A stretch of 64,000 bases of DNA from contig NZ_CP116413.1 in assembly GCF_030064675.1 (NCBI RefSeq), positions 3,814,001 through 3,878,000 of the forward strand, in the 5' to 3' direction. The position numbers and the translations under genes are program-made. The stretch's first letter is position 1. The number at the start of each line of letters is the position of its first letter. Source of the DNA: Crossiella sp. CA-258035. GTDB taxonomy: Bacteria; Actinomycetota; Actinomycetes; Mycobacteriales; Pseudonocardiaceae. The notes beneath the pieces are model-generated. The model saw only the letters and a program-made list of their open reading frames with translations. It had not been told where the DNA came from and searched no databases. Below are positions 40,457 through 53,455 of this stretch, one piece after another.

Positions 40457-40588
40457 GTGGTCAGCACACCCCGTTGTGATCGTCGCGTCGTGTCCGCCGG
40501 GGAACCTACCCGGCGCACCGAATCGTTCGCACACCGTCCACCCTGTGTTCACCGGGTACGGTCGGCCGGGCGGGTACGAAGGAGTGTC

Positions 40589-41536
40589 ATGGCCGTGTCA
40601 GAGCAGCAGGTCACCGGCTCAGGGGACCTGGTCGCCGTGCTGGCGAGCGTCTTCGCCGAGGTCGCGCCGGGCGCGGGCGGGCAGGGCCGGGTGGCCGACT
40701 ACATCCCGGCGCTGTCCGAAGTGGACCCCGGCGGTTTCGGCTTCGCCGCCGCGGACCTGGCCGGGCGGGCGGTGGGGGTGGGGGACTGGCAGGCGCCGTT
40801 CTCCATCCAGAGTGTGTCCAAGGTGTTCTCCCTCGCCCTGGTGCTGGCCGCGGAGGGCGAGGCGCTGTGGCGGCGGGTGGGGCGCGAGCCCTCGGGCAAC
40901 CCGTTCAACTCGCTGGTGCAGCTGGAGTACGAGAGCGGAATTCCGCGGAACCCTTTCATCAACGCCGGCGCGCTGGTGGTGACCGACCGGCTGCTCTCCC
41001 TCACCGGGGACGCCCGGGGCGCGGTGCGCGATTTCCTGCGGGCGGAGAGCGGGAACGAGCGGGTCGACTTCGATGTCTCGGTGGCCCGTTCGGAGACCGC
41101 GCACGGCGACCGGAACGCGGCTTTGGCGCATCTGATGGCCAGTTATGGCAATCTGGAGAATCCCGTGCCGCAGGTGCTCGAACACTATTTCTGGCAGTGC
41201 TCGATCACGATGAGCTGCCGGGATCTCGCCTTGGCCGGTTCGTTCCTCGCCCGGCACGGCGTGCGCGCGGATGGTTCACGGTTGTTGTCGCGCAGCGAGG
41301 CGAAAAGGGTCAACTCGGTCATGCTGACCTGTGGCGCCTATGACGCGGCCGGGGAGTTCGCCTACCGGGTCGGGCTGCCCGGCAAGAGCGGGGTCGGCGG
41401 CGGCATCCTGGCCGTGGTGCCGGGGCGGTACTCGCTGTGCACGTGGAGCCCGGCGCTGGACGAGCGTGGGAACTCGGTCGCCGGCGTGGCCGCGTTGGAC
41501 CGGTTCACCACGCTCACCGGGCTTTCGGTGTTCTAA
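40589..41536 (+). CDS. glsA: Glutaminase
   Basis: 315 residues from ATG 40589 (GAAGGAG upstream). Serine-dependent beta-lactamase-like glutaminase with the catalytic Ser 75-x-x-Lys 78 in SIQSVSKVFSL, FNSLVQLEYESGIPRNPFINAGA, and LPGKSGVGGGILAVVPG near the C-terminus. Full length compared with bacterial YbgJ/YbaS-type enzymes (~310). Converts L-glutamine to glutamate and ammonia in the cytoplasm. Monocistronic. Confidence 0.93.
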   Translation: MAVSEQQVTGSGDLVAVLASVFAEVAPGAGGQGRVADYIPALSEVDPGGFGFAAADLAGRAVGVGDWQAPFSIQSVSKVFSLALVLAAEGEALWRRVGREPSGNPFNSLVQLEYESGIPRNPFINAGALVVTDRLLSLTGDARGAVRDFLRAESGNERVDFDVSVARSETAHGDRNAALAHLMASYGNLENPVPQVLEHYFWQCSITMSCRDLALAGSFLARHGVRADGSRLLSRSEAKRVNSVMLTCGAYDAAGEFAYRVGLPGKSGVGGGILAVVPGRYSLCTWSPALDERGNSVAGVAALDRFTTLTGLSVF

Positions 41537-41934
41537 CCGGTCAGCACGTCCTCCTCGACTCTCGGCGGCCAGGCCCCCGATCCCTCCAGAATCCGCGCTC
41601 TGGTCCGGCTGAGCTGGATCCGGACCTTTCCGGCTCTGGTCACCGTGTGCTGCGCCGTCACCTGGCCGCTCCTCTGCGTCGATGCGTTCCCCTCACCGCA
41701 AGAGCATGCGCCGGAACCACCCCCGAGGACATGGTGGAAACACCACGAGAAGATAGCCGCGGGGCCTGTGGAATACCGCAGTAATGGCTGTGTTGCGCCC
41801 GCTTAAAGGAATTCGAAAGGGCGGTGCCCGGGCAAGAGTGTGGGATCGTGAAGGCAATTCTGGAGTACGGTTCTGGTGCCGGTCCGAAAGGGTTCGGCGA
41901 ATCCCCCAGAAAACTCCCTACCTAAGGAGCTGTC
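41537..41934 (+). promoter_or_regulatory. Leader and promoter region of the lanthipeptide cluster
   Basis: 398 bases without a supported gene. The first ~190 bases are GC-rich and featureless. At 41734-41751 lies the GTGG-N5-CCAC element that recurs at 50723. From about 41785 the sequence becomes more AT-rich, and CTAAGGAG at 41922 is a good ribosome-binding site for lanA. Small open frames here overlap lanA out of frame and are not credible. Confidence 0.5.
41734..41751. promoter_or_regulatory. Shared 18-bp dyad element, copy upstream of lanA
   Basis: GTGGAAACACCACGAGAA contains the dyad GTGG-AAACA-CCAC and is identical, base for base, to 50723-50740 upstream of the small LuxR-type gene. 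It ends 183 bases before the lanA start. A binding site for a common regulator is inferred; the small LuxR protein or one of the LAL proteins downstream are candidates. Confidence 0.5.
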
Positions 41935-42159
41935 ATGGACATTGTGCGCGTGTGGAAGGACGCGGAGTACCGGCGTTCGCTGGGCATCGTGGCGCACCCG
42001 GCCGGTGAGGTGAACCTCTCCGACGCCGCACTGGCCAACGTGGCCGGTGGCGCCCGCCCGACCTGGGTCTGCCCGAGCAAGGTCGTGTGCCAGACCACGC
42101 CCACCACGACCACCACGACCACCGCGCAGACCGCCAAGAGCGTCTGCGTCTGCCCGTAA
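41935..42159 (+). CDS. lanA: Class II lanthipeptide precursor with poly-threonine core
   Basis: 74 residues. The leader (1-39) has the mersacidin/lichenicidin style: DIVRVWKDAEYRRSL, then HPAGEVNLSD and the double-glycine site NVAGG, cut after Gly 39. The 35-residue core starts ARPTWVCPSKVVC and ends KSVCVCP. It has four Cys (46, 52, 71, 73), ten Thr after Cys 52, and Thr 43, Ser 48 and Ser 69. The WVC start and VCxC end resemble actagardine, but the CTxTxEC lipid II motif is replaced by CPSKVVC, and residues 54-63 are TTP followed by seven Thr. The Thr run is encoded by three copies of a 9-base unit (ACCACGACC, first copy with CCC), pointing to slippage expansion. Modified by LanM and exported by LanT. 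Confidence 0.9.
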   Translation: MDIVRVWKDAEYRRSLGIVAHPAGEVNLSDAALANVAGGARPTWVCPSKVVCQTTPTTTTTTTAQTAKSVCVCP

Positions 42160-42166
42160 GAGACCC

Positions 42167-42202
42167 GCCGGGGCCGCGCCTGAGCACTGGCGCGGCCCCG
42201 GC
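42167..42202 (+). terminator. Attenuator hairpin between lanA and lanM
   Basis: GCCGGGGCCGCGCC and GGCGCGGCCCCGGC form a perfect 14-base-pair stem with an 8-base loop, starting 7 bases after the lanA stop. There is no T-run. Such hairpins commonly let precursor mRNA outnumber the downstream enzyme mRNA and protect its 3' end. Confidence 0.7.
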
Positions 42203-42260
42203 GCGCCACGCCACCGTCCCGCCGCCGCACCCGGCGCCAGCACCCGAGGAGGCAGGCCGC

Positions 42261-45200
42261 ATGTCCGCGCCTACCCACGACGTTCCCGCCGACCCGGCGA
42301 CCGCGCCCGACCTGCCCTGGGAACGCGCCGCCACCCTCGCCGAGCGCCAGCTCGGCTCCGGCCCAGGACCGGTCCCGGCCGCGGACCTGGCCGTGGGCGC
42401 CCGCCGCCTCGAGCTGTGGCGCGAGCTGCCGCCCTTCCAGGTCGAGGAGGAGGAGTTGGACCGGGCCTTCGCCCCGGTCGGGGTCACCGCGGCGCGGCTG
42501 GCCTGCCTGCTCGGCGAACCCCCTGACCGGCTGCGCGAGCGGCTGGCCGGGGAACCCGGCTGGGTGCGGCAGTTCGCCGCCGCGCTGACCGAGGACCGGC
42601 CGCTGCCAGCCGAGGTGGACGTGCTGCCGGACCAGCTCGCCCTGGCCGAGGTGCTGCGGCCCCAGCTGCGGCAGGCGCTGCGCTGGCTGGCCGCCGCGCT
42701 GGACTGGTCGGAGCTGCCCGCGGGGCTGCTCACCGTGCTGGCCGCGAGCCTGCCGATCCCGGTGCTGGCCCACGCGGTGCAGCGCACCCTCACCCTGGAG
42801 CTCAACGTGGCCAGGGTGCGGGGCCGCCTGGCCGGGGACACCCCCGAGCAGCGGTTCCGGTCCTTTGTGGACTCACTGCGGGAGCAGGAGACCGCGCTGG
42901 CGGTGTGGCGGGAGTACCCGGTGCTGGCCCGCTACGTGCAAGGCATCCTGAACCGCTGGCTCGCCACCAGGGTCGAGTTCGCCCAGCACCTGCGCGCCGA
43001 CCGCGCCGAGATCGTCGCCACCGTGCTCGAGGGCGTGGATCCCGGGCAGGTCAGCGAGGTGGTCTTCGGCTCGGGCGACACCCACCGCGGCGGCCGCAGC
43101 GTGGCCATCGTGCGCTTCGAGCGCGCCACCGTGGTGTTCAAACCCCGCTCGCTGGCGGTGGACCTGGTGTTCAACCGCTTCCTGGACTGGTTCAACCGGC
43201 AGCGCCCGGCGCACCCGTTGCGCGCGCTGCGGGTGCTCGACCGCGGGGACCACGGCTGGGTGGAGTTCGCCGCCACCGGCCCGTGCGCCACCAGGGCGGA
43301 GCTGCACGCCTTCTACTGGCGCACCGGCGCCCTGCTCGGGCTGCTGCATTCCCTGCGCGCCACCGACTTCCACATCGAGAACATCATCGCGGCCGGTCCG
43401 CACCCGGTGCTGGTCGACATGGAAGCCCTGTTCCACACCAATCCCTGGGACGCGGGCGCGGCCGACCCCTCACCGCCGGAGCAGGCATTCGCCGAGTCGG
43501 TGCTGATGGTCGGCCTGCTGCCGCAGCCGATGGTGTTGCGGGACAAGGAAGGCAAGAGCTTCAGCGCGGACATGTCCGGGGTCGCCGGGCGCGGCGGCCA
43601 GAGCCTGGAACCGGTGCCGGTGCTGGACGGGATGGGCACCGACGAGATGCGCGTGGTCAACCGGCACATCGACACCGAGGGCTCGGACAACCTGCCCCGC
43701 CTTGTCGACGGCGGCGCGATCCGGGTGCAGGAGTTCGCCGGGGCGGTCCGGGACGGCTTCGAGTTCAGCTACCGGCGCATCCTGGCCGACCGCGGCACGC
43801 TGCTCGCCGACTCCGGGCTGATCGAGGAGTTCGGCGAGATCACCCTGCGACTGATCCTGCGCCCCACCCGCTTCTACGCCAGGGTGATGGAGGAGAGCCT
43901 GCACCCGGACTTCCTGCGCGACGCGCCCGACCGGCAGCGCGCGCTGGCCCGGCTGTGCGAGGCGCCCAAGGACATGCCGCACGGGGCCGAGGTGCTCGCC
44001 GCGGAGCTGCGCGCGATGTGGCTGGGCGACATCCCGTTCTTCGAGTTCACCCCCGGCGCGCGGACGGTGGTCCTGGACGACGGCCAGGAACTGCCCGGGG
44101 TGCTGGCACAAGCCCCACTGGAGCTGGTGCGGGCACGGATCGAGCGGATGGGCGAGACCGATCTGCGCCGCCAGCTCGACCTGATCAGGGACTCCTTCCT
44201 GGTGCTGGAAGCGGGTCCCGAGGCGGGTGCGGCCCGCAGGGTGCGACCGGCGGACCTCGCCGGGGACAAGGCCGCACCCGCCGAACACCCGGCCACCAAG
44301 GCGGAACTGCTCGCCGCGGCCGAGTCGGTCGGCGCGGCGCTGGAGGCCGGTGCGCTGCGGGAGGGGCGGCGGATCGGCTGGCTGGGCATCGACCTGGTCG
44401 ACGAACGGCACTGGCAGATCCTGCCCGGCGCCCAGGACCTCTACGGCGGACTCGCCGGGGTCGGCCTGTTCCTGGCCTACCTGGCCCGGCACACCGGGCG
44501 GGACCGCTGGCACGCGCTGGCCACCGCGGTCGCCGACGAGGTGGCCCTGCTGACCGAGCGCAGCGGCGAGGAGTGGGCGAAGCTGCCCGAACGGCAGCGG
44601 GACAACCTCATCCGCGAACTCCCCTGGGACATCGGCGGTTTCGGCGACCTGGCCGGGGGCGCGTACTACCTCGCGCACGCCGCGGCTGTGCTGGAGCGGC
44701 CCGAGCTCGCCGACCACGCGGCCGGGCTGCTGCCGATGCTGAGCGAGGTGGTGCACCGGGACGAGCAGTACGACGTGCTCGGCGGCTCGGCGGGCGCGAT
44801 CCTCGCCCTGCTCGCCCTGGCCGACAGTCCACATCGGACAGACGCGCTGCGGGTGGCCAACCAGGCCGGCGCGCACCTGCTGGCCAACCGGGTGGAGACC
44901 GACCTGGGCTACGGCTGGCTCGCCCCCGCCGCCGGCCAGCCGCTCACCGGCCTCTCCCACGGCAACGCGGGCATCGCGATGGCGCTGGCCCGGCTGCACG
45001 CGCACACCCCGCGCGCGGACTACCTGACCACCCTGCTCGGCGCACTGGCCCACGAGAACGGCCACTACCTGCCCGAGGCCGCGAACTGGCTGGACCTCAG
45101 GGAGCTCAGCCCGCAGGGCAGCACCAGCTACGCCTGGTGCCACGGCGCGCCGGGCATCGCACTGACCCGGCACGACCTGCTGCGGCACGACTTCCTGGCC

Positions 45201-45545
45201 GGGCACGCCCACCGGCTGCGCGCCGACCTGGCCGCCGCCGCGCACACCACCGCGGCGGTGCAGCGGGCCGCCGCGCAGACCGGCGGGCTGGCCAACCACG
45301 GCCTGTGCCACGGCGAGCTGGGCAACCTGGACGTGCTGCTCACCACCGGCGGCCTGGCCGAGTCGGAGCTGGGCAGGCTGGTGGCCGGTCAGCTCGCCAC
45401 CGCGCGGACCGGCTGGCGCTGCGCGGTGCCCGAGGGCACCAGCACCCCCGGCCTGATGCTCGGCCTGGCCGGGATCGGCTACGCGCTGCTGCGCTTCGCC
45501 GAACCCGCCGCCACCCCCTCGGTGCTGCTGCTGGACAAGCCATGA
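42261..45545 (+). CDS. lanM: Class II lanthipeptide synthetase LanM
   Basis: 1094 residues from ATG 42261 (GAGGAGG upstream); the frame is open back into lanA but without a start site. The N-terminal ~650 residues are the kinase-like dehydratase (VVFKPRSLAVDLVFN, TDFHIENIIAAGPHPVLVDMEALFHTN, LILRPTRFY), which phosphorylates and eliminates Ser/Thr. The C-terminal LanC-like cyclase carries the zinc ligands Cys ~960 (WCHGAPG), Cys ~1016 and His ~1017 (GLCHGELGN), plus GLSHGNAGIAMAL. Complete for the family (900-1100). The stop overlaps the next ATG. Confidence 0.95.
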   Translation: MSAPTHDVPADPATAPDLPWERAATLAERQLGSGPGPVPAADLAVGARRLELWRELPPFQVEEEELDRAFAPVGVTAARLACLLGEPPDRLRERLAGEPGWVRQFAAALTEDRPLPAEVDVLPDQLALAEVLRPQLRQALRWLAAALDWSELPAGLLTVLAASLPIPVLAHAVQRTLTLELNVARVRGRLAGDTPEQRFRSFVDSLREQETALAVWREYPVLARYVQGILNRWLATRVEFAQHLRADRAEIVATVLEGVDPGQVSEVVFGSGDTHRGGRSVAIVRFERATVVFKPRSLAVDLVFNRFLDWFNRQRPAHPLRALRVLDRGDHGWVEFAATGPCATRAELHAFYWRTGALLGLLHSLRATDFHIENIIAAGPHPVLVDMEALFHTNPWDAGAADPSPPEQAFAESVLMVGLLPQPMVLRDKEGKSFSADMSGVAGRGGQSLEPVPVLDGMGTDEMRVVNRHIDTEGSDNLPRLVDGGAIRVQEFAGAVRDGFEFSYRRILADRGTLLADSGLIEEFGEITLRLILRPTRFYARVMEESLHPDFLRDAPDRQRALARLCEAPKDMPHGAEVLAAELRAMWLGDIPFFEFTPGARTVVLDDGQELPGVLAQAPLELVRARIERMGETDLRRQLDLIRDSFLVLEAGPEAGAARRVRPADLAGDKAAPAEHPATKAELLAAAESVGAALEAGALREGRRIGWLGIDLVDERHWQILPGAQDLYGGLAGVGLFLAYLARHTGRDRWHALATAVADEVALLTERSGEEWAKLPERQRDNLIRELPWDIGGFGDLAGGAYYLAHAAAVLERPELADHAAGLLPMLSEVVHRDEQYDVLGGSAGAILALLALADSPHRTDALRVANQAGAHLLANRVETDLGYGWLAPAAGQPLTGLSHGNAGIAMALARLHAHTPRADYLTTLLGALAHENGHYLPEAANWLDLRELSPQGSTSYAWCHGAPGIALTRHDLLRHDFLAGHAHRLRADLAAAAHTTAAVQRAAAQTGGLANHGLCHGELGNLDVLLTTGGLAESELGRLVAGQLATARTGWRCAVPEGTSTPGLMLGLAGIGYALLRFAEPAATPSVLLLDKP

Positions 45546-45976
45546 GCGAGCTGCCGGAAGGCCTGTACCGGCCGGAAGCGGTGCGCGCGCACCAGGAGTC
45601 CCCGCGCGGCCGGGAGGACAAGCCCGCCGCGCCGATCCGGCCGCGCTGGTGGCCGGCCTGGACCGCGGTCAGCGTGCTGGCCGCCGCGGTCGCGGTGTGC
45701 TGGCTGGTGCGGGTGCCGGTGACCGCGCGCGCCACCGTGGTCTCGGTGGACGGCGATGTGGTGGTGGCCGAGGTGACCAACGGCGAACGGCCGCACGCCG
45801 GGCTGCGCGCGCAGGTGGTCACCCAGACCGGCACCGTCACCGGACTGGTGGTGGCCGACTCGCCGGAGCTGCGTCTGCGGGTGCAGCCGCCGCCCGGCGG
45901 GCTGGCGCTGGAGCGGATCTCGGCGATCGCGATCCCCTCCGGCAGCCGTTCGCTGCTGCTGGACCTGCTGGGGTGA
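45542..45976 (+). CDS. Miniature HlyD-like membrane protein of the lanthipeptide operon
   Basis: 144 residues; ATG 45542 overlaps the lanM stop. The N-terminus ELPEGLYRPEAVRAHQ resembles the start of bacteriocin-export accessory (HlyD-like) proteins. One membrane helix (WWPAWTAVSVLAAAVAVCWLV) is followed by a ~80-residue beta domain (ATVVSVDGDVVVAEVTNGERPHAGL, RISAIAIPSGSRSLL) like a lipoyl/barrel half. The long coiled coil and the rest of a normal adaptor (400+ residues) are absent. Placed directly before lanT, it may assist the transporter (inference). Confidence 0.7.
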   Translation: MSELPEGLYRPEAVRAHQESPRGREDKPAAPIRPRWWPAWTAVSVLAAAVAVCWLVRVPVTARATVVSVDGDVVVAEVTNGERPHAGLRAQVVTQTGTVTGLVVADSPELRLRVQPPPGGLALERISAIAIPSGSRSLLLDLLG

Positions 45977-45987
45977 GGGGAGTGCAC

Positions 45988-48129
45988 GTGCGCAAGCGCC
46001 GGATCAGGGTGGAACTGCAGAACACCACCGCCGAGTGCGGGCTGGTCTGCCTGGCGATGATCCTGTCCCACCACGGCTGCGACCTGTCCTCCCAGGAGCT
46101 GCGCGACGGGATCGGCACCGGACGGGACGGCACCAGCGCGCTGGAGCTGCTGCGGGTGGCCAGGGAATGGGGACTGCACGCCGAGGCCAGACGACTCGAA
46201 CCCGCCGATCTGTCCACAATGGACGTTCCAGTGATCCTGCACTGGGAGTTCAGCCACTTCGTGGTGCTGGAGCGCTACACCCCGGACCGGATCACCATCA
46301 TCGACCCGGCCGAGGGCAGGCGGGTGGTCACCGCCGAGGAGTTCGACCGCGGCTTCACCGGCGTGGTGCTCCTCTTCCGGCCCACCCCGGCGCTGCCCCG
46401 CCGCCGCAGGCACACCCTGCGCGCGCTGATCTCCTTCGTGCGCACGGTCTTCCCCAAGGCCAGGGCCGCGCTGGGGCTGGTGGTGCTGTGCTCGGTGCTG
46501 CTGGTGCTGCTCGGCCTGCTGCCCGCGCTGCTCACCCAGTACCTGGTGGACGAGGTGGTGCCGGCGGGGGAGCAGGGCACGCTGACCGCGCTCGGCCTCG
46601 GCCTGGTCGCCTTCGTCGCCGGACAGGCCATGACCGGCTACGGCCGGGCGGAACTGTTGGTGTACCTGCAAACCAGGACAAGCCGGAACCTGTCCACGAA
46701 GTTCCTGCGGCGGCTGGTGGACCTGCCGTACTCCTACTTCCAGCTGCGCACCGGCGGTGACCTGCTGAGCCGCTTCGGCAGCAGCGAGGTGATCCGGGAC
46801 CTGGTCACCGCCCAGTTCCTCGCCCTGGTCCTGGACGGCGCGCTGGTGCTGCTCTACCTCGGCGTGCTCTTCGCCGGATCGGCGGCCTTCGCGCTGGTGG
46901 TCGCGGCCACCGGGGTGCTGAACCTGCTGGTGCTGTGGCTGTTCGCGCGGCGGGCGCACGAGCTGACCGAGATGCAGCTCTCCCGGATGGCGCACACCCA
47001 GAGCTACCTGCTGGAGACCGTGGTCGGGGTGGAGACGATCAAGGCATCCGGCGCGGAGGACCGGGCCTACCAGCGGTGGTCGCGGATGTTCGACCGGCAG
47101 CTGAGGGTGAGCATGGACCGGCAGTCCCTGGACAACCACATGGACCTGTGGCTGACCGTGCTGCGCGCCGGGATGCCGTTGGGGCTGCTGTGGTTCGGCG
47201 CGCACCTGGTGCTCTCCGGCGACCTCGGCCTGGGCCAGATGCTGGCGATGAACACCCTGGCCGGTTCGGTGTTCGCGCCGCTGACCTCGCTGGCGCTGAG
47301 CGCGAAGTCCTTCCAAACCGTGGGCGTGCACCTGACCCGGATTCAGGACGTGCTGCGCGAGGCGCCCGAGCAGCCGGACCGGAAGATGTTGCTGCGACCT
47401 AAGATCACCGGCGCGATCGAGCTGGACCGGGTCTCCTTCCGCTACGGCCCGGAGGCCGACCCCGCGGTCAGCGAGGTCTCGGTGCGCTGCCCGGCGGGCT
47501 CCAAGATCGCCATCGTGGGCCGCACCGGCTCCGGCAAGAGCACCCTGGCCCGGCTCATGCTCGGCCTGTACCGGCCCAGCTCGGGCACCGTGTGTTTTGA
47601 CGGCGTGCCAACGGAGCTGCTCGACCTGACCGCGCTGCGCGGGCAGTGCGGGGTCGTCATGCAGACCCCGCACATCTACAGCGGCTCGATCCTGGAGAAC
47701 CTGACCCTCAAGGTGCCCGACGCCCCGTTCGCCGAGGTGGTGCGCGCCGCGGTGCTGGCCGAGGTGCACGAGGACCTGATGCGGATGCCGTTGAACTACC
47801 ACACGATGCTCTCCGAAGGCGGCGCCGGACTCTCCGGCGGCCAGCTGCAACGGGTGGCCATCGCCCGCGCGGTGCTGGGCAAACCGAGGATCCTGCTCTT
47901 CGACGAGGCCACCAGCCACCTGGACGCGGCCACCGAGCTGGCGGTGCAGCGCAACCTGGACGAGCTGGGCAGCACCCGGATCGTGATCGCGCACCGGCTG
48001 AGCACGGTGCGCAACGCCGACCTGATCATCGTGATGGACAACGGCCGCATCGCCGAGCTCGGCACCCACGAGCAGCTGCTGCGCGACGGCGGACCCTACT
48101 GCACGCTGGTGGAGTCCCAGCTCACCTGA
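45988..48129 (+). CDS. lanT: Lanthipeptide ABC transporter with C39 peptidase domain (LanT)
   Basis: 713 residues from GTG 45988, chosen because GAGGGG is 7 bases upstream; GTG 45982 would add two residues. The C39 peptidase domain has the catalytic Cys 17 (TAECGLVCLAMIL), His ~90 (FSHFVVLE) and Asp ~106 (IIDPAEG), so it should cut after the Gly-Gly of LanA. A six-helix transporter domain follows, then the ATPase with Walker A GRTGSGKST (Lys ~517), LSGGQLQRVAIARA, ILLFDEATSHLD and the H-loop IAHRLSTV. Removes the leader and exports the modified core. Last gene of the operon. Confidence 0.95.
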   Translation: MRKRRIRVELQNTTAECGLVCLAMILSHHGCDLSSQELRDGIGTGRDGTSALELLRVAREWGLHAEARRLEPADLSTMDVPVILHWEFSHFVVLERYTPDRITIIDPAEGRRVVTAEEFDRGFTGVVLLFRPTPALPRRRRHTLRALISFVRTVFPKARAALGLVVLCSVLLVLLGLLPALLTQYLVDEVVPAGEQGTLTALGLGLVAFVAGQAMTGYGRAELLVYLQTRTSRNLSTKFLRRLVDLPYSYFQLRTGGDLLSRFGSSEVIRDLVTAQFLALVLDGALVLLYLGVLFAGSAAFALVVAATGVLNLLVLWLFARRAHELTEMQLSRMAHTQSYLLETVVGVETIKASGAEDRAYQRWSRMFDRQLRVSMDRQSLDNHMDLWLTVLRAGMPLGLLWFGAHLVLSGDLGLGQMLAMNTLAGSVFAPLTSLALSAKSFQTVGVHLTRIQDVLREAPEQPDRKMLLRPKITGAIELDRVSFRYGPEADPAVSEVSVRCPAGSKIAIVGRTGSGKSTLARLMLGLYRPSSGTVCFDGVPTELLDLTALRGQCGVVMQTPHIYSGSILENLTLKVPDAPFAEVVRAAVLAEVHEDLMRMPLNYHTMLSEGGAGLSGGQLQRVAIARAVLGKPRILLFDEATSHLDAATELAVQRNLDELGSTRIVIAHRLSTVRNADLIIVMDNGRIAELGTHEQLLRDGGPYCTLVESQLT

Positions 48130-48185
48130 CCGCCCACCTCGCCGCAGCCGCAAACCCGCAGGCGTGTTGGCCGTTGTCGTACAGG

Positions 48186-48221
48186 GTGTTGGCCGAACTG
48201 GTACGCCCGTTCGGCCAACAC
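48186..48221 (+). terminator. Terminator hairpin of the lanthipeptide operon
   Basis: GTGTTGGCCGAAC pairs perfectly with GTTCGGCCAACAC (13 base pairs, 10-base loop) 56 bases after the lanT stop. Its right arm is also the first GGCCAACAC of the tandem repeat that follows, and another inverted half (GTGTTGGCCGTTGT) lies at 48164. Confidence 0.65.
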
Positions 48222-48305
48222 AGCGTCCACAACGGCCAACACAGCGTCCACAACGGCCAACACGGCGTCCACAACGGCCAACACGGCGTCCACAACGGCC
48301 AACAC
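48213..48305. repeat. 21-bp tandem repeat, about 4.4 copies
   Basis: Units of 21 bases begin GGCCAACAC and end GTCCACAAC at 48213, 48234, 48255 and 48276, with a partial fifth at 48297. The first two units have AGC and the last two GGC at bases 10-12; otherwise they are identical. There is no spacer, so it is not a CRISPR array. It lies between the convergent lanT and DUF1579-like genes. Because 21 is a multiple of three, each frame encodes a 7-residue repeat, none supported as a protein. Confidence 0.9.
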
Positions 48306-48310
48306 ACTGC

Positions 48311-48763
48311 TCAGGGCTTCCGCTGGAACTCCATGATCCAGTTGGACTCCCAGGTCTGGCCCTCGTCGGCGGAGAACTCCTGTTCCCAGCGGGCGGAGTC
48401 CGCGGTGATCGCCGACCAGGTGAAGCGCACCAGCACCGGCTTGCCCTCGTGCTCGTCCTCGCCGTGGAAGCGGCCCAGTCCGTCGGTGAAGCCGCCCACC
48501 ACGGGCGGGCCGAGCAGCCCGGTGCGGCTGTTCGCCCAGTAGATCGACCACTCCCGGCGCTCCGGGTCGAACAGCCGCAGGGTGAGGCCCCGGCTGCCCA
48601 GGGTGGGGAAGACGATCTCGTCGAGGCAGCCGCCGCCGTCGAAGACCGACTGGGCGGTGGAGGTGCCGGGGAAGGACACCCAGTCCGGGCAGTCGGCGAG
48701 CCACTGCTCGCGGCGGTGGTTGGTCACGTGCCAGGAGCCGGTGAGGAAGTCGAAGTCGTTCAT
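48311..48763 (-). CDS. DUF1579-like beta-barrel protein
   Basis: 150 residues from ATG 48763. Begins NDFDFLTGSWHVTNHR, followed by CLDEIVFPTLGSRGLTLRLFDPERREWSIYW and ends WESNWIMEFQRKP. This resembles DUF1579-type small calycin-like barrels, which are single-domain proteins of unknown role. The stop codon directly abuts the 21-bp repeat. Expressed divergently from nothing obvious; it follows the rox-like gene on the same strand with 37 bases between. Confidence 0.7.
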   Translation of the reverse strand: MNDFDFLTGSWHVTNHRREQWLADCPDWVSFPGTSTAQSVFDGGGCLDEIVFPTLGSRGLTLRLFDPERREWSIYWANSRTGLLGPPVVGGFTDGLGRFHGEDEHEGKPVLVRFTWSAITADSARWEQEFSADEGQTWESNWIMEFQRKP

Positions 48764-48800
48764 GCCGACGATCCTCACCGGCCAACCCTGACACCTACTG

Positions 48801-50369
<1,569 letters not shown>

Positions 50370-50414: not shown

Positions 50415-50660
50415 CTAACGCTCCACAAAGGACTCGGCCACCCGGGGCGGCCAGGACCCGGCGAGCAGGATGCCTGCCGCGTAGGCGCGGGCGACCAGCG
50501 CGACCCGGTTCGGCGCGGACAGCGAACGCTGCATCGCGGCCAGGTGGTACTCCACGCCGCGCGCGCTCAGCCGCAGCCGCACCGCCAGGCGGTGGGTGGT
50601 CTCGCCGCGGGCGATCCCCTCCAGGATCCGGGCGCGCGTCGCGCTCAACTCCGAGGTCAT
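50415..50660 (-). CDS. Stand-alone LuxR-type HTH protein
   Basis: 81 residues from ATG 50660, preceded by GGAGGGTGGGAAG. It consists almost wholly of a LuxR/GerE HTH (LSATRARILEGIARGETTHRLAVRLRLSARGVEYHLAAMQR) with no receiver, ligand or ATPase domain. Short stand-alone GerE proteins act as DNA-binding regulators in actinomycetes. Its 5' region holds the 18-bp dyad shared with the lanA promoter. It follows the LAL gene on the same strand with an 86-base gap. Confidence 0.75.
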   Translation of the reverse strand: MTSELSATRARILEGIARGETTHRLAVRLRLSARGVEYHLAAMQRSLSAPNRVALVARAYAAGILLAGSWPPRVAESFVER

Positions 50661-50722
50661 CTTCCCACCCTCCGCAGTCCAACAGGCCCCCGATCATCGG
50701 CGCTCCGCACGTCGTGGGCACC

Positions 50723-50740
50723 GTGGAAACACCACGAGAA
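50723..50740. promoter_or_regulatory. Shared 18-bp dyad element, copy upstream of the small LuxR gene
   Basis: Exact copy of 41734-41751, lying 63-80 bases upstream of the small LuxR start, between it and the stop of the LAL gene. Here the dyad is one pair longer (CGTGG-AAACA-CCACG). Autoregulation by the LuxR protein together with control of lanA would explain the pairing. Confidence 0.5.
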
Positions 50741-50746
50741 CAGGAC

Positions 50747-53455
50747 TCAACCAGGCCGGATCGGGTAGACGTCGCGGAGCTCGGCCCGTCCGGTCACACC
50801 GAGTTTCCGGTAGATCGCGGAGAGGTGACCCTCCACCGTCCGCTGGGTCAGGTCCAGCCGGGCGGCGATGTCCCGGTTCGTGCAACCGCTTACCGCCAGC
50901 TCGGCCACCCGCGCCTCCCTGGCGGTCAGCGCCCCCGGCCCGGTCACCGGCCGTGGCTGGGCCGGTGCGCCGAGCGCGGCCAGCCGGTCCCGCGTCAGCG
51001 AGACCAGCCGGCAGGCCCCGCACTCCCAGGCCACCGCGCCGGCCCGCGCCAGGCTCTCCCGCGCCAGCCGGGTCCGCCCGGCCGCCTGCTGCGCGGCGCC
51101 CAGGTCGGCCAGCGTCCTGGCCAGCTCCAGCCGGGCACCGGCGCGGTGCAGCGCGGCCGCTGACTCGTGCAGCAGCTCCTGCCCGCGACTGCCCCCGGCG
51201 ACCACGCCGAGGGTGCGCAACGCGACCCCGATGGCCTGGTCCGAGCCCCACTCGGTGGCCAGCTCGTAGGCCTGGTCGGCCAGCTCCCGCGCCCGGTGCA
51301 GGTCGTTGCGGGCCAGGTGCGCCCGCGCGGCCCAGGACCGCCAGTCGGGCACGGCCGGGTTGCGGTGGCCCATCCTGGCCTGGCGTTCCCCGCAGGTCAG
51401 CAGGTCGGCCAGCCCGCCGTCGAGGTCACCCCGGACGATCCGCGCGCGACCCCTGGCCAGCAGGTAGGGATTCCACAGGTAGGAGGCCTCCAGTGCGGGC
51501 GTCGGGGTGACCGCGTCCAGCAGCCGGGCGGCCTGCGCCGGGCGGTCCCGGTCGAGCAGCGACTCGGCGAGCAGGCCGAGCGGGACCAGGTGCGGGAAGC
51601 TGGTGACCTCGGCCGGCAGCAGGTCGAAGGTCGCGCGCACGGTGCGGATGGTGGCCCGCAGGTCGCCCTGGACGAAGGAGACCGCGGCCCGGCAGGTCAG
51701 CATGATCGCCCGCCCGAACCCGGAGTCCTCCCGCGCGATCGCGGCGTCGGCGCACTCGGCGGCGCGCTGGGTGTGTCCGGCCCAGAGCAGCGCCCAGACC
51801 GGGGCGGCCGCGGCGACGCCGTCGAGGGGGGCAGGGCTGGGAGCGAGGGCTTGGGTGGCCAGGTCGGCGGCGGCGGTGGCGGAGCCGCCGAAGAGGGCGG
51901 TGGCGAAGGCCAGCGCGCCGAGCAGCGACCGCTCACCCGCGCTGCCTGCCTCGCCTGCGGCGCTCGCCTCTCGCAGCCGCCAGGCCTCCGCCCGAGCCTC
52001 GGGTGCGGTGTTCTCCTCCAGCACCGCCCAGGTCAGCCGCCGGGCGTCCAGCACCAGCGCCGACTCCCGGTCCACCGGCCGCAGCCGTTCCGCGGTGCGC
52101 GCCAGCACCCGCACCGCCTCGTCCACCCTGGACTCGCGGACCAGGTTGTCCCCCAGCACTTCCGCCACCTCGCGGCAGCGGGCCGGTTCGGTCAGCTCGT
52201 CCAGCGCCAGCGCCAGGTAGCGCGCGCCGGCCGCCGGGCGCACCATCGACTCCGCCATGCCCAGTGCCACCAGCACGTCCAGCCGTTCCTCGCCCGGTGG
52301 CGGTTCGGCCAGTGCCCGGCGCAGGTAGTGCGCGGCGGCCTCCGGGGCTCCGCGCAGGGTGGCCTGGTCGGCGGCCGCGCGCAGGGTTCTGGCCTGCCAG
52401 GTCACGCCCGACGGGGGGAGTCGGACCAGGTGGGCGGCGACCTGTTCCGCCGGGGCGCCTGCCGCGTCCAGCAGCCGGGCGGCCGCGCGGTGCAGCTCGC
52501 CGCGGCGGGCGGGCGGCACGCCCTGGTAGACCGCCTCGCGCAGCTGGGCGTGCGACCAGCGCAGCGCGTGTTCGGCGAGCAAACCCAAGGCGCGCAGCTC
52601 TGCCGCGCACCGCCTGGCCCCTTCTTCGTCCACTGTGGACAGTTCTGCGGGTAGGGCGATGTCCGGCGCTTCGCCGAGCACGGCCAGGGTCTCGGCGAAG
52701 CGCCGGATCTCCGGCGGGAACCCGGACAGCCAGTCCAGCACCGAACGCCCGAATGCCTGCCCGGTGAACCCGGCCGGGGCCGCCGCTCGCCGCAGCAGCA
52801 CCGCCAGCAGTGGGTTGCCGCCGGTGAGCTGGTGGCTGCCGGGCACGGCGCTGCCGACCAGCCGCGCCGCGGCCGACTCGCTCAGCGGGCCCAGGGCGAG
52901 CTGGGCGCAGCCGTCGGCGGGGGCGCTGGGTTGCAGGATCAGTTGCAGCAGCGGCAGTTCGGGGTGTCTGCGGCGCAGGTGGGCCAGCCAGCGCAGGGAG
53001 GGCTCGTCGGCCAGGTGGGCGTCGTCGACCACCAGCACCAGCGTGCCGCCCGCCCGGTCGGCCACCGCGCGGGTGAGCTCGCTCAGCCCGAGCGGCACCG
53101 CGAACGGGTCCCCGTGCTCCTCCAGCCCGGTCAGCACCGCGCGGGCCGCCCGCGCCCGCCCGGCGAACAACCCGTCCGCGTCCGGCCCGGCCAGCACCGG
53201 TTCGAACAGCTGCCGGACCACGCCGAAGGCGAACTCCCGCTCCAGCTCGTCGCAGCGGGCGCGCAGCACCGGCACGTCCGGCGGCACCCGCTCGGCCAGG
53301 AAGGTCCGTACCAGGCTGGTCTTGCCGATACCGGCCGGACCGGTCACGTACACGGTGCGGCCCGCGCCCGCGCGCACCCGCGCGAACTCGGCGGCGAGCC
53401 GGTCCAGTTCGGCCTCGCGTTCCAGCAGCGGGCCGGGCAGGGCCAGCTCAGACAT
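50747..53455 (-). CDS. LAL-family (large ATP-binding LuxR) regulator 1
   Basis: 902 residues from ATG 53455. Walker A VTGPAGIGKTSLV (Lys ~45) and Walker B TLVLVVDDAHLADEP near the N-terminus, a long helical TPR-like middle (VAAHLVRLPPSGVTWQARTLRAAADQA), and a C-terminal LuxR HTH (LTAREARVAELAVSGCTNRDIAARLDLTQRTVEGHLSAIYRKLGV). LAL proteins usually switch on sugar-use or secondary-metabolite genes in response to a small ligand and ATP. The start overlaps the 3' end of the next LAL gene by 8 bases, so the two form one operon. Confidence 0.9.
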   Translation of the reverse strand: MSELALPGPLLEREAELDRLAAEFARVRAGAGRTVYVTGPAGIGKTSLVRTFLAERVPPDVPVLRARCDELEREFAFGVVRQLFEPVLAGPDADGLFAGRARAARAVLTGLEEHGDPFAVPLGLSELTRAVADRAGGTLVLVVDDAHLADEPSLRWLAHLRRRHPELPLLQLILQPSAPADGCAQLALGPLSESAAARLVGSAVPGSHQLTGGNPLLAVLLRRAAAPAGFTGQAFGRSVLDWLSGFPPEIRRFAETLAVLGEAPDIALPAELSTVDEEGARRCAAELRALGLLAEHALRWSHAQLREAVYQGVPPARRGELHRAAARLLDAAGAPAEQVAAHLVRLPPSGVTWQARTLRAAADQATLRGAPEAAAHYLRRALAEPPPGEERLDVLVALGMAESMVRPAAGARYLALALDELTEPARCREVAEVLGDNLVRESRVDEAVRVLARTAERLRPVDRESALVLDARRLTWAVLEENTAPEARAEAWRLREASAAGEAGSAGERSLLGALAFATALFGGSATAAADLATQALAPSPAPLDGVAAAAPVWALLWAGHTQRAAECADAAIAREDSGFGRAIMLTCRAAVSFVQGDLRATIRTVRATFDLLPAEVTSFPHLVPLGLLAESLLDRDRPAQAARLLDAVTPTPALEASYLWNPYLLARGRARIVRGDLDGGLADLLTCGERQARMGHRNPAVPDWRSWAARAHLARNDLHRARELADQAYELATEWGSDQAIGVALRTLGVVAGGSRGQELLHESAAALHRAGARLELARTLADLGAAQQAAGRTRLARESLARAGAVAWECGACRLVSLTRDRLAALGAPAQPRPVTGPGALTAREARVAELAVSGCTNRDIAARLDLTQRTVEGHLSAIYRKLGVTGRAELRDVYPIRPG

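What the first reader, a model, noticed from the sequence alone, without database searches (positions are those of the whole stretch)
41935..42159. Lanthipeptide precursor with an actagardine-like frame and an inserted threonine run
The leader and the WVC...VCxC layout place it near mersacidin/actagardine, but the CTxTxEC lipid II ring is lost and a TTP-T7 segment separates the two Cys pairs. Three 9-base units (ACCACGACC type) encode the run, so it looks like a repeat expansion. If LanM dehydrates it, the core would carry up to seven consecutive Dhb residues, which I do not know from a described lanthipeptide.
Basis: partly seen in the sequence, partly recalled or inferred. Interest (0 to 1): 0.85.

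Follow-up and report, generated by a model that had tools for sequence, protein, structure and literature searches.

The report
Threonine-run lanthipeptide precursor in Crossiella
An actinobacterium carries a complete gene set for a small ring-containing peptide whose middle is an unusual run of threonines, kept in sister species; whether the run is chemically changed in the product is unknown.

Summary
Window 41935-42159 (+) encodes a 74-residue class II lanthipeptide precursor: TIGR03898 (mersacidin/lichenicidin) leader, GG site, four Cys, and TTP-T7 between the Cys pairs. An intact LanM, a small protein and a peptidase-type LanT follow. The genome is a Crossiella. Four of 5 genus genomes searched have the precursor, 74 aa each, with Thr runs of 7, 5, 6 and 6. 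Length is constant, so the 9-base repeat does not point to a recent expansion. Of 39 usable leader-family peptides read, only the 4 Crossiella cores have three or more Thr in a row. The nearest characterised relative I met is roseocin; the actagardine likeness is slight and the lipid II motif is absent. Each Cys can close on an invariant Ser/Thr outside the run (T43, S48, T66, S69), so the run is most likely a linker, at least partly dehydrated to Dhb. Ring pattern and dehydration are inferred; no product is known. In strain SN42 of the same species LanM is missing.

The parts
41924..41929 (+). AAGGAG, likely ribosome-binding site of the precursor
   Evidence: read; five bases before ATG
41935..42051 (+). 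leader peptide, residues 1-39, ending in GG
   Evidence: TIGR03898 residues 2-39, 40.9 bits; dN/dS 0.12 against each of two species
42052..42156 (+). core peptide, residues 40-74: 4 Cys, 13 Ser/Thr
   Evidence: cleavage after GG39 is inferred from the double-Gly site and the C39 peptidase
42094..42123 (+). 9-base tandem repeat, 3.3 copies, codons 54-63 (TTP-T7)
42103..42123 (+). seven Thr codons T57-T63; T59-T63 are Thr in 4 of 4 orthologues
42166..42203 (+). perfect 15-bp hairpin between lanA and lanM; role inferred: partial terminator or mRNA-stabilising stem
   Evidence: -40.3 kcal/mol, z -5.56; stem kept in two other species, one pair C-G in the window, U-A in S99.2, U-G in G001
42261..45545 (+). 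LanM lanthipeptide synthetase, 1094 aa
   Evidence: TIGR03897 784.1 bits, cut-off 304; PF13575 and PF05147 over cut-off; alignments to LicM2 and CylM; motifs located
45542..45976 (+). small protein: one long hydrophobic helix, then a beta-strand domain; role unknown, a transport accessory is a guess
   Evidence: no family in NCBIfam or Pfam at E 0.01; AlphaFold2 mean pLDDT 67.9; best Foldseek matches are F1-ATPase subunits over about 79 columns, query TM-score about 0.40, best E 1.6e-4
45973..48129 (+). LanT: C39 peptidase, ABC membrane and ATPase domains
   Evidence: PF03412, PF00664, PF00005 over cut-off; start GTG 45973
50747..53455 (-). LuxR-type ATPase regulator; possible regulator of the cluster, because window 50433-52453 follows lanT directly in G001 and nearly so in S99.2
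   Evidence: PF13191 and PF00196; DNA matches of 73.8% and 74.8%

Best explanation
The ORF is the single precursor of a Crossiella class II lanthipeptide. The leader docks on LanM, which dehydrates Ser/Thr of the core and closes the four Cys; LanT removes the leader after GG39 and exports the product. Likely rings: T43-C46, S48-C52, and an overlapping C-terminal pair T66-C71 and S69-C73. The Thr run is not needed for any ring; it is a linker of fixed length between the N-terminal and C-terminal ring pairs, and at least part of it is dehydrated to Dhb. Shown: ORF, leader family, intact LanM and LanT, conservation in the genus. Inferred: ring pattern, cleavage site, extent of dehydration, antibacterial role.
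For: Leader TIGR03898 over cut-off. LanM over cut-off, with K294, D369, H371, N374 and D386 aligned to CylM K274, D347, H349, N352 and D364, and C1016/H1017 to C911/H912 in a weak second stretch (2.2 bits); C960 rests on the LicM2 alignment (roles from passages of PMC4550811). LanT with C39 domain. Cluster syntenic in two further species: 81.3% DNA identity over 41925-48134 in G001 and 80.8% over 41834-48226 in S99.2. Precursor 74 aa in 4 of 4; core dN/dS 0.33 and 0.35; codons 59-66 with 2 synonymous and 0 non-synonymous differences against each of two species. T43, S48, T66, S69 and all four Cys invariant in 4 of 4. A class II product with two separate rings and two overlapping C-terminal rings formed from SSLATPCKRC is published (PMC13343206, abstract and passages).
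Against: No mass, no expression data, no product. Four orthologues only, one of them the same species by the tool's label, so conservation has little power. Known LanM products leave some Ser/Thr untouched: Ser12 of roseocin alpha, Ser3/Thr4 of TlaA1. T57 and T58 are Leu in some orthologues. In Crossiella sp. SN42, the nearest genome, LanM is missing, and G002 has no precursor match.
Confidence: 0.6

Rival explanations
1. The Thr run stays as plain threonine: a flexible polar spacer that LanM skips; only the four ring-forming residues, and perhaps T54/T55, are dehydrated.
For: All Cys can be satisfied outside the run. Incomplete dehydration is published for class II products (passages). T57 and T58 are replaced by Leu in orthologues, so single hydroxyls there are dispensable.
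Against: A mere spacer would be expected to accept Ala, Ser, Gly or Pro; T59-T63 are Thr in 4 of 4, but four sequences are few.
Confidence: 0.3
2. The run is a by-product of slippage in an ACC/ACG repeat, with no selected role.
For: 9-base tandem repeat with 3.3 copies; ACN runs occur at 11 places in the genome at background rate.
Against: No length change among 4 orthologues; different codon order under the same Thr; substitutions and not indels.
Confidence: 0.08
3. The peptide is one half of a two-peptide lantibiotic, as in roseocin, with a partner elsewhere.
For: 53% identity over 47 columns (leader plus TWxC) to the first precursor of the roseocin-type locus; some relatives carry two or three precursors beside LanM.
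Against: No second convincing match in the own genome: the next hits have E of 0.0449 or more (searched with this precursor only). One leader-family peptide in each of the syntenic loci L025 and L066 that read.
Confidence: 0.1
4. The locus is decaying and makes nothing.
For: SN42 lacks LanM, the small protein and the LanT peptidase part; G002 has no precursor match.
Against: Three of 5 genus genomes keep a full, syntenic set, with pairwise dN/dS below 1 for each of the four genes (0.12-0.84).
Confidence: 0.12

Closest known systems
Roseocin, two-peptide lantibiotic of Streptomyces roseosporus
   Same: 53% identity over 47 columns covering leader and TWxC; LanM 40% and LanT 49% identical in L079. 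L079 is taken as a roseocin locus because its second precursor holds SGVLGTLGCC and SGWTVCGLAC, printed for roseocin alpha in PMC10027976 (passages); that its first precursor is the beta peptide is inferred.
   Different: One precursor, not two; no common core beyond TWxC; no Thr run in the roseocin-type peptides.
Actagardine / mersacidin type
   Same: Leader family TIGR03898; WVC and VCxC in the core (likeness to actagardine recalled, from no call).
   Different: The lipid II motif TxTxEC, given for mersacidin in PMC7268733 (passages), is absent; Thr run present.
TlaA1/TlaA2 of Thermoactinomyces sp. DSM 45891 (PMC13343206)
   Same: Four Cys; two separate rings, then two overlapping C-terminal rings; extra dehydroamino acids.
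   Different: Different sequence and no Thr run in the parts that I saw; the ring pattern here is inferred.
Ser/Thr-rich LanM-type substrates with LanJ reductases (Nostoc punctiforme peptide; bicereucin, recalled as Ser/Thr-rich)
   Same: More Ser/Thr than Cys, so many residues may be dehydrated (PMC5808125, passages).
   Different: Those systems reduce dehydro residues to D-amino acids with LanJ; no LanJ was seen among the genes kept with this cluster.

Membership tests
Class II lanthipeptide cluster | LanM with dehydratase (DUF4135) and LANC-like domains | tested here: met
   TIGR03897 784.1 bits; PF13575 and PF05147 over cut-off
Class II lanthipeptide cluster | LanM catalytic and zinc residues | tested here: met
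   residue roles from passages of PMC4550811; first zinc Cys by the LicM2 alignment only
Class II lanthipeptide cluster | Precursor with double-Gly site and Ser/Thr and Cys in the core beside LanM | tested here: met
Class II lanthipeptide cluster | (Methyl)lanthionine in the product | not testable with these tools
   needs MS
Mersacidin/lichenicidin leader family (TIGR03898) | score over the curated cut-off | tested here: met
   40.9 bits against 23.5
Mersacidin/actagardine lipid II binders | core motif TxTxEC | tested here: not met
   absent from the core and from the 3 orthologues
Two-component lantibiotic (roseocin type) | two different precursors for the LanM | tested here: not met
   one leader-family peptide in L025 and in L066; no further match in the own genome below E 0.0449. 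A partner with an unrelated leader is not excluded.
D-amino-acid lanthipeptides (LanJ) | LanJ reductase in the cluster | tested here: inconclusive
   none among lanA, lanM, small protein, lanT or the ten neighbouring ORFs scanned, where the only redox gene is a FAD hydroxylase absent from this place in G001 and S99.2; reductases elsewhere were not searched

The most novel reading that the evidence does not exclude
LanM dehydrates most of the run, giving five to seven consecutive Dhb: a stiff, unsaturated rod that holds an N-terminal and a C-terminal ring pair at a fixed distance. This would be a new architecture for a lanthipeptide.
Probability: 0.3. Interest if true: 0.7.

Novelty: new variant of a known kind. 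Interest (0 to 1): 0.45.

Why it matters
The biosynthetic machinery is ordinary, so the unusual core can be tested directly by co-expression. It asks how far a LanM can go along an uninterrupted run of threonines, and whether a poly-Dhb rod occurs in nature. Natural variants with 5, 6 and 7 Thr in a row are at hand for comparison.

Tried and rejected
Recent repeat expansion: rejected on constant length and codon order. Actagardine membership: rejected on the missing lipid II motif. TIGR04497 (ATP-grasp target, 19.6 bits, cut-off 32) and TIGR03793 (12.4 bits, cut-off 50.9): below cut-off, set aside. Pfam gave nothing for the precursor. The viral collection gave no relative, phages none, plasmids three cyanobacterial records matching 51-53% of the query, the leader. 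The genome-contig scan used two leader patterns only and found 2 Crossiella loci, so it says little about cores like this one behind other leaders. The DNA alignment had two of its four loci on the wrong strand; I drew nothing from it. Structure of the small protein: middling confidence, 11 Foldseek matches at E <= 0.001, the listed ones F1-ATPase subunits; no function drawn. No Rfam match over threshold in 40500-49000; no sigma-70-like promoter and no T-tailed terminator in 41530-42300 by simple scan.

Literature: ten searches. None of TTTTTTAQ, TWVCPS, AQTAKSVC was found; no paper held lanthipeptide, class II and poly-Thr together. The two papers were seen as listings only. Of the nine papers (lanthipeptide with TTTTTT) I read passages of one, PMC4550811, for LanM residues, and did not look at the TTTTTT places. 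Papers seen as 'find' passages: PMC10027976, PMC7268733, PMC13343206 (with its abstract), PMC9415966, PMC11519912, PMC5808125, PMC9872173 (not used), PMC4550811. No paper was read whole.

Rows dropped: 43 rows printed; four left out before counting (two repeat rows with E above 1, one hit cut short inside the leader, one cut by the locus edge), leaving 39: 4 Crossiella, 35 others. The 35 include near-identical roseocin-type variants and some weak or Cys-poor peptides, and the profile was built from 13 leaders of the same loci.

Full report
What is there. Window 41935-42159 (+) is an ATG-TAA frame of 74 residues. Residues 2-39 match TIGR03898, mersacidin/lichenicidin family type 2 lantibiotic, with 40.9 bits against a cut-off of 23.5. 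After GG39 the core holds Cys46, Cys52, Cys71 and Cys73 and 13 Ser/Thr, with T54 T55 P56 T57-T63 between the Cys pairs. The frame is real: AAGGAG lies five bases before the start, and against each of two other species dN/dS is 0.12 for the leader and 0.33 and 0.35 for the core.

Surroundings. A perfect 15-bp hairpin (42166-42203) follows the stop codon. In the two more distant species the stem persists; one pair is C-G in the window, U-A in S99.2 and U-G in G001. Then come LanM 42261-45545, a small protein 45542-45976 and LanT with a C39 peptidase 45973-48129, each of the last two overlapping the gene before it by four bases. Upstream lies a glutaminase gene; downstream, on the other strand, lie a FAD hydroxylase and LuxR-type genes. 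The cluster is kept at 81.3% DNA identity over 41925-48134 in G001 and at 80.8% over 41834-48226 in S99.2; the next stretch of both loci matches window 50433-52453 and 50436-52400 (LuxR genes), without the FAD hydroxylase region between. A LuxR-type ATPase regulator is therefore a neighbour in three species and a candidate regulator.

LanM. It aligns with LicM2 and CylM. Lys294, Asp369, His371, Asn374 and Asp386 stand at CylM Lys274, Asp347, His349, Asn352 and Asp364, which PMC4550811 describes as conserved active-site residues (passages). Cys1016/His1017 meet CylM Cys911/His912 in a second stretch of only 2.2 bits; Cys960 rests on the LicM2 alignment. The DxHxxN motif is intact in the two orthologues too; a first test read false only because the motif used was too strict.

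Who has it. The host is a Crossiella: the same-species genome G004 has the contig length of Crossiella sp. SN42, and G003 that of Crossiella sp. S99.2. In the genus search 4 of 5 genomes (own one included) have the precursor at E <= 0.001 and G002 has none. All four are 74 aa; the stretch from residue 54 reads TTPTTTTTTT (window), TTPTLTTTTT (SN42), TTQLTTTTTT (G001) and TTQLTTTTTT (S99.2). Of 346 family genomes 13 match at E <= 0.001: the four Crossiella and nine others with weak matches, the best at 9.0e-7. Of 394 class genomes 9 match at E <= 0.01, and only the own one over the full length. TIGR03898 was over its cut-off in 6 of 394 class genomes and in 9 of 256 genomes of the genus of G684. 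From the loci held I read 39 usable leader-family peptides: the 4 Crossiella cores have longest Thr runs of 7, 5, 6 and 6; the longest among the other 35 is 2. These searches sample species, and only this leader family was compared; cores behind other leaders were not.

Repeat or constraint. The 9-base repeat is genuine in the window, but the length is the same in all four orthologues, the codon order differs (G001 codons 54-63: ACG ACC CAG CTG ACC ACG ACC ACC ACC ACC), and the changes are substitutions. Codons 59-66 show 2 synonymous and 0 non-synonymous differences against each of two species. This fits constraint on length and, more weakly, on Thr identity; eight codons in so few sequences prove little. 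ACN runs of this length also occur elsewhere in the genome at background rate.

Likely product. T43, S48, T66, S69 and all four Cys are invariant in 4 of 4, so each Cys can close on a residue outside the run: T43-C46, S48-C52, and overlapping T66-C71 and S69-C73. A class II product with two separate rings and two overlapping C-terminal rings is known (PMC13343206, abstract and passages). The run is then a linker, T54-T63. Whether LanM dehydrates it is open. Published cases go both ways: seven dehydrations in TlaA2, mostly five and six in TlaA1; an undehydrated Ser12 in roseocin alpha; [quoted passage not shown] I put 0.3 on five or more consecutive Dhb and 0.3 on a mainly unmodified run; the rest lies between.

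Loss in one strain. In SN42 the precursor is 98.6% identical, but the DNA then jumps twice, to a short stretch from the start of lanM and then to the middle of lanT. LanM and the small protein gave no match in the 16-kb locus and LanT only from residue 182 of P0005 on, so its peptidase domain is missing. No LanM match at E <= 1e-100 was found in that genome, where two candidates were scored. The first jump lies at a 7-base repeat. Unless the assembly is wrong, this strain cannot make the product with this cluster.

Known or new. [quoted passage not shown] I saw no class II cluster in what was shown. My searches of the held library found no description of this core; most papers of subscription journals are not held. 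It is a class II lanthipeptide with an ordinary leader and enzymes and an unusual Thr-run core found so far only in Crossiella: a variant of a known kind.

Noticed in passing
window 48160-48310: 21-base tandem repeat (4.5 copies, 97% matches) with inverted copies beside it; the own genome holds 99 matching pieces at E <= 0.001, some overlapping on both strands: a dispersed repeat family.
   Followed up: partly
L024 7990-9890 (Crossiella sp. SN42): lanM, the small gene and the LanT peptidase part are missing behind an almost unchanged precursor; first junction at a 7-base repeat.
   Followed up: partly
L016, L017, L027, L125, L126: A conserved class II core around GCNTKTCVxxRGNS occurs in two genomes of the window's family and three of another family (genus of G684); it looks like a separate lanthipeptide family.
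   Followed up: no
L068 10280-11470 and L070 9580-10460: Each locus has three different leader-family precursors beside one LanM match, possibly multi-component lantibiotics.
   Followed up: no
window 50415-53455: LuxR-type genes that lie next to lanT in G001 and S99.2 but behind a FAD hydroxylase region in the window; candidate regulators.
   Followed up: partly
window 42166-42203: Hairpin between lanA and lanM kept across species with a change on both sides of one pair.
   Followed up: yes
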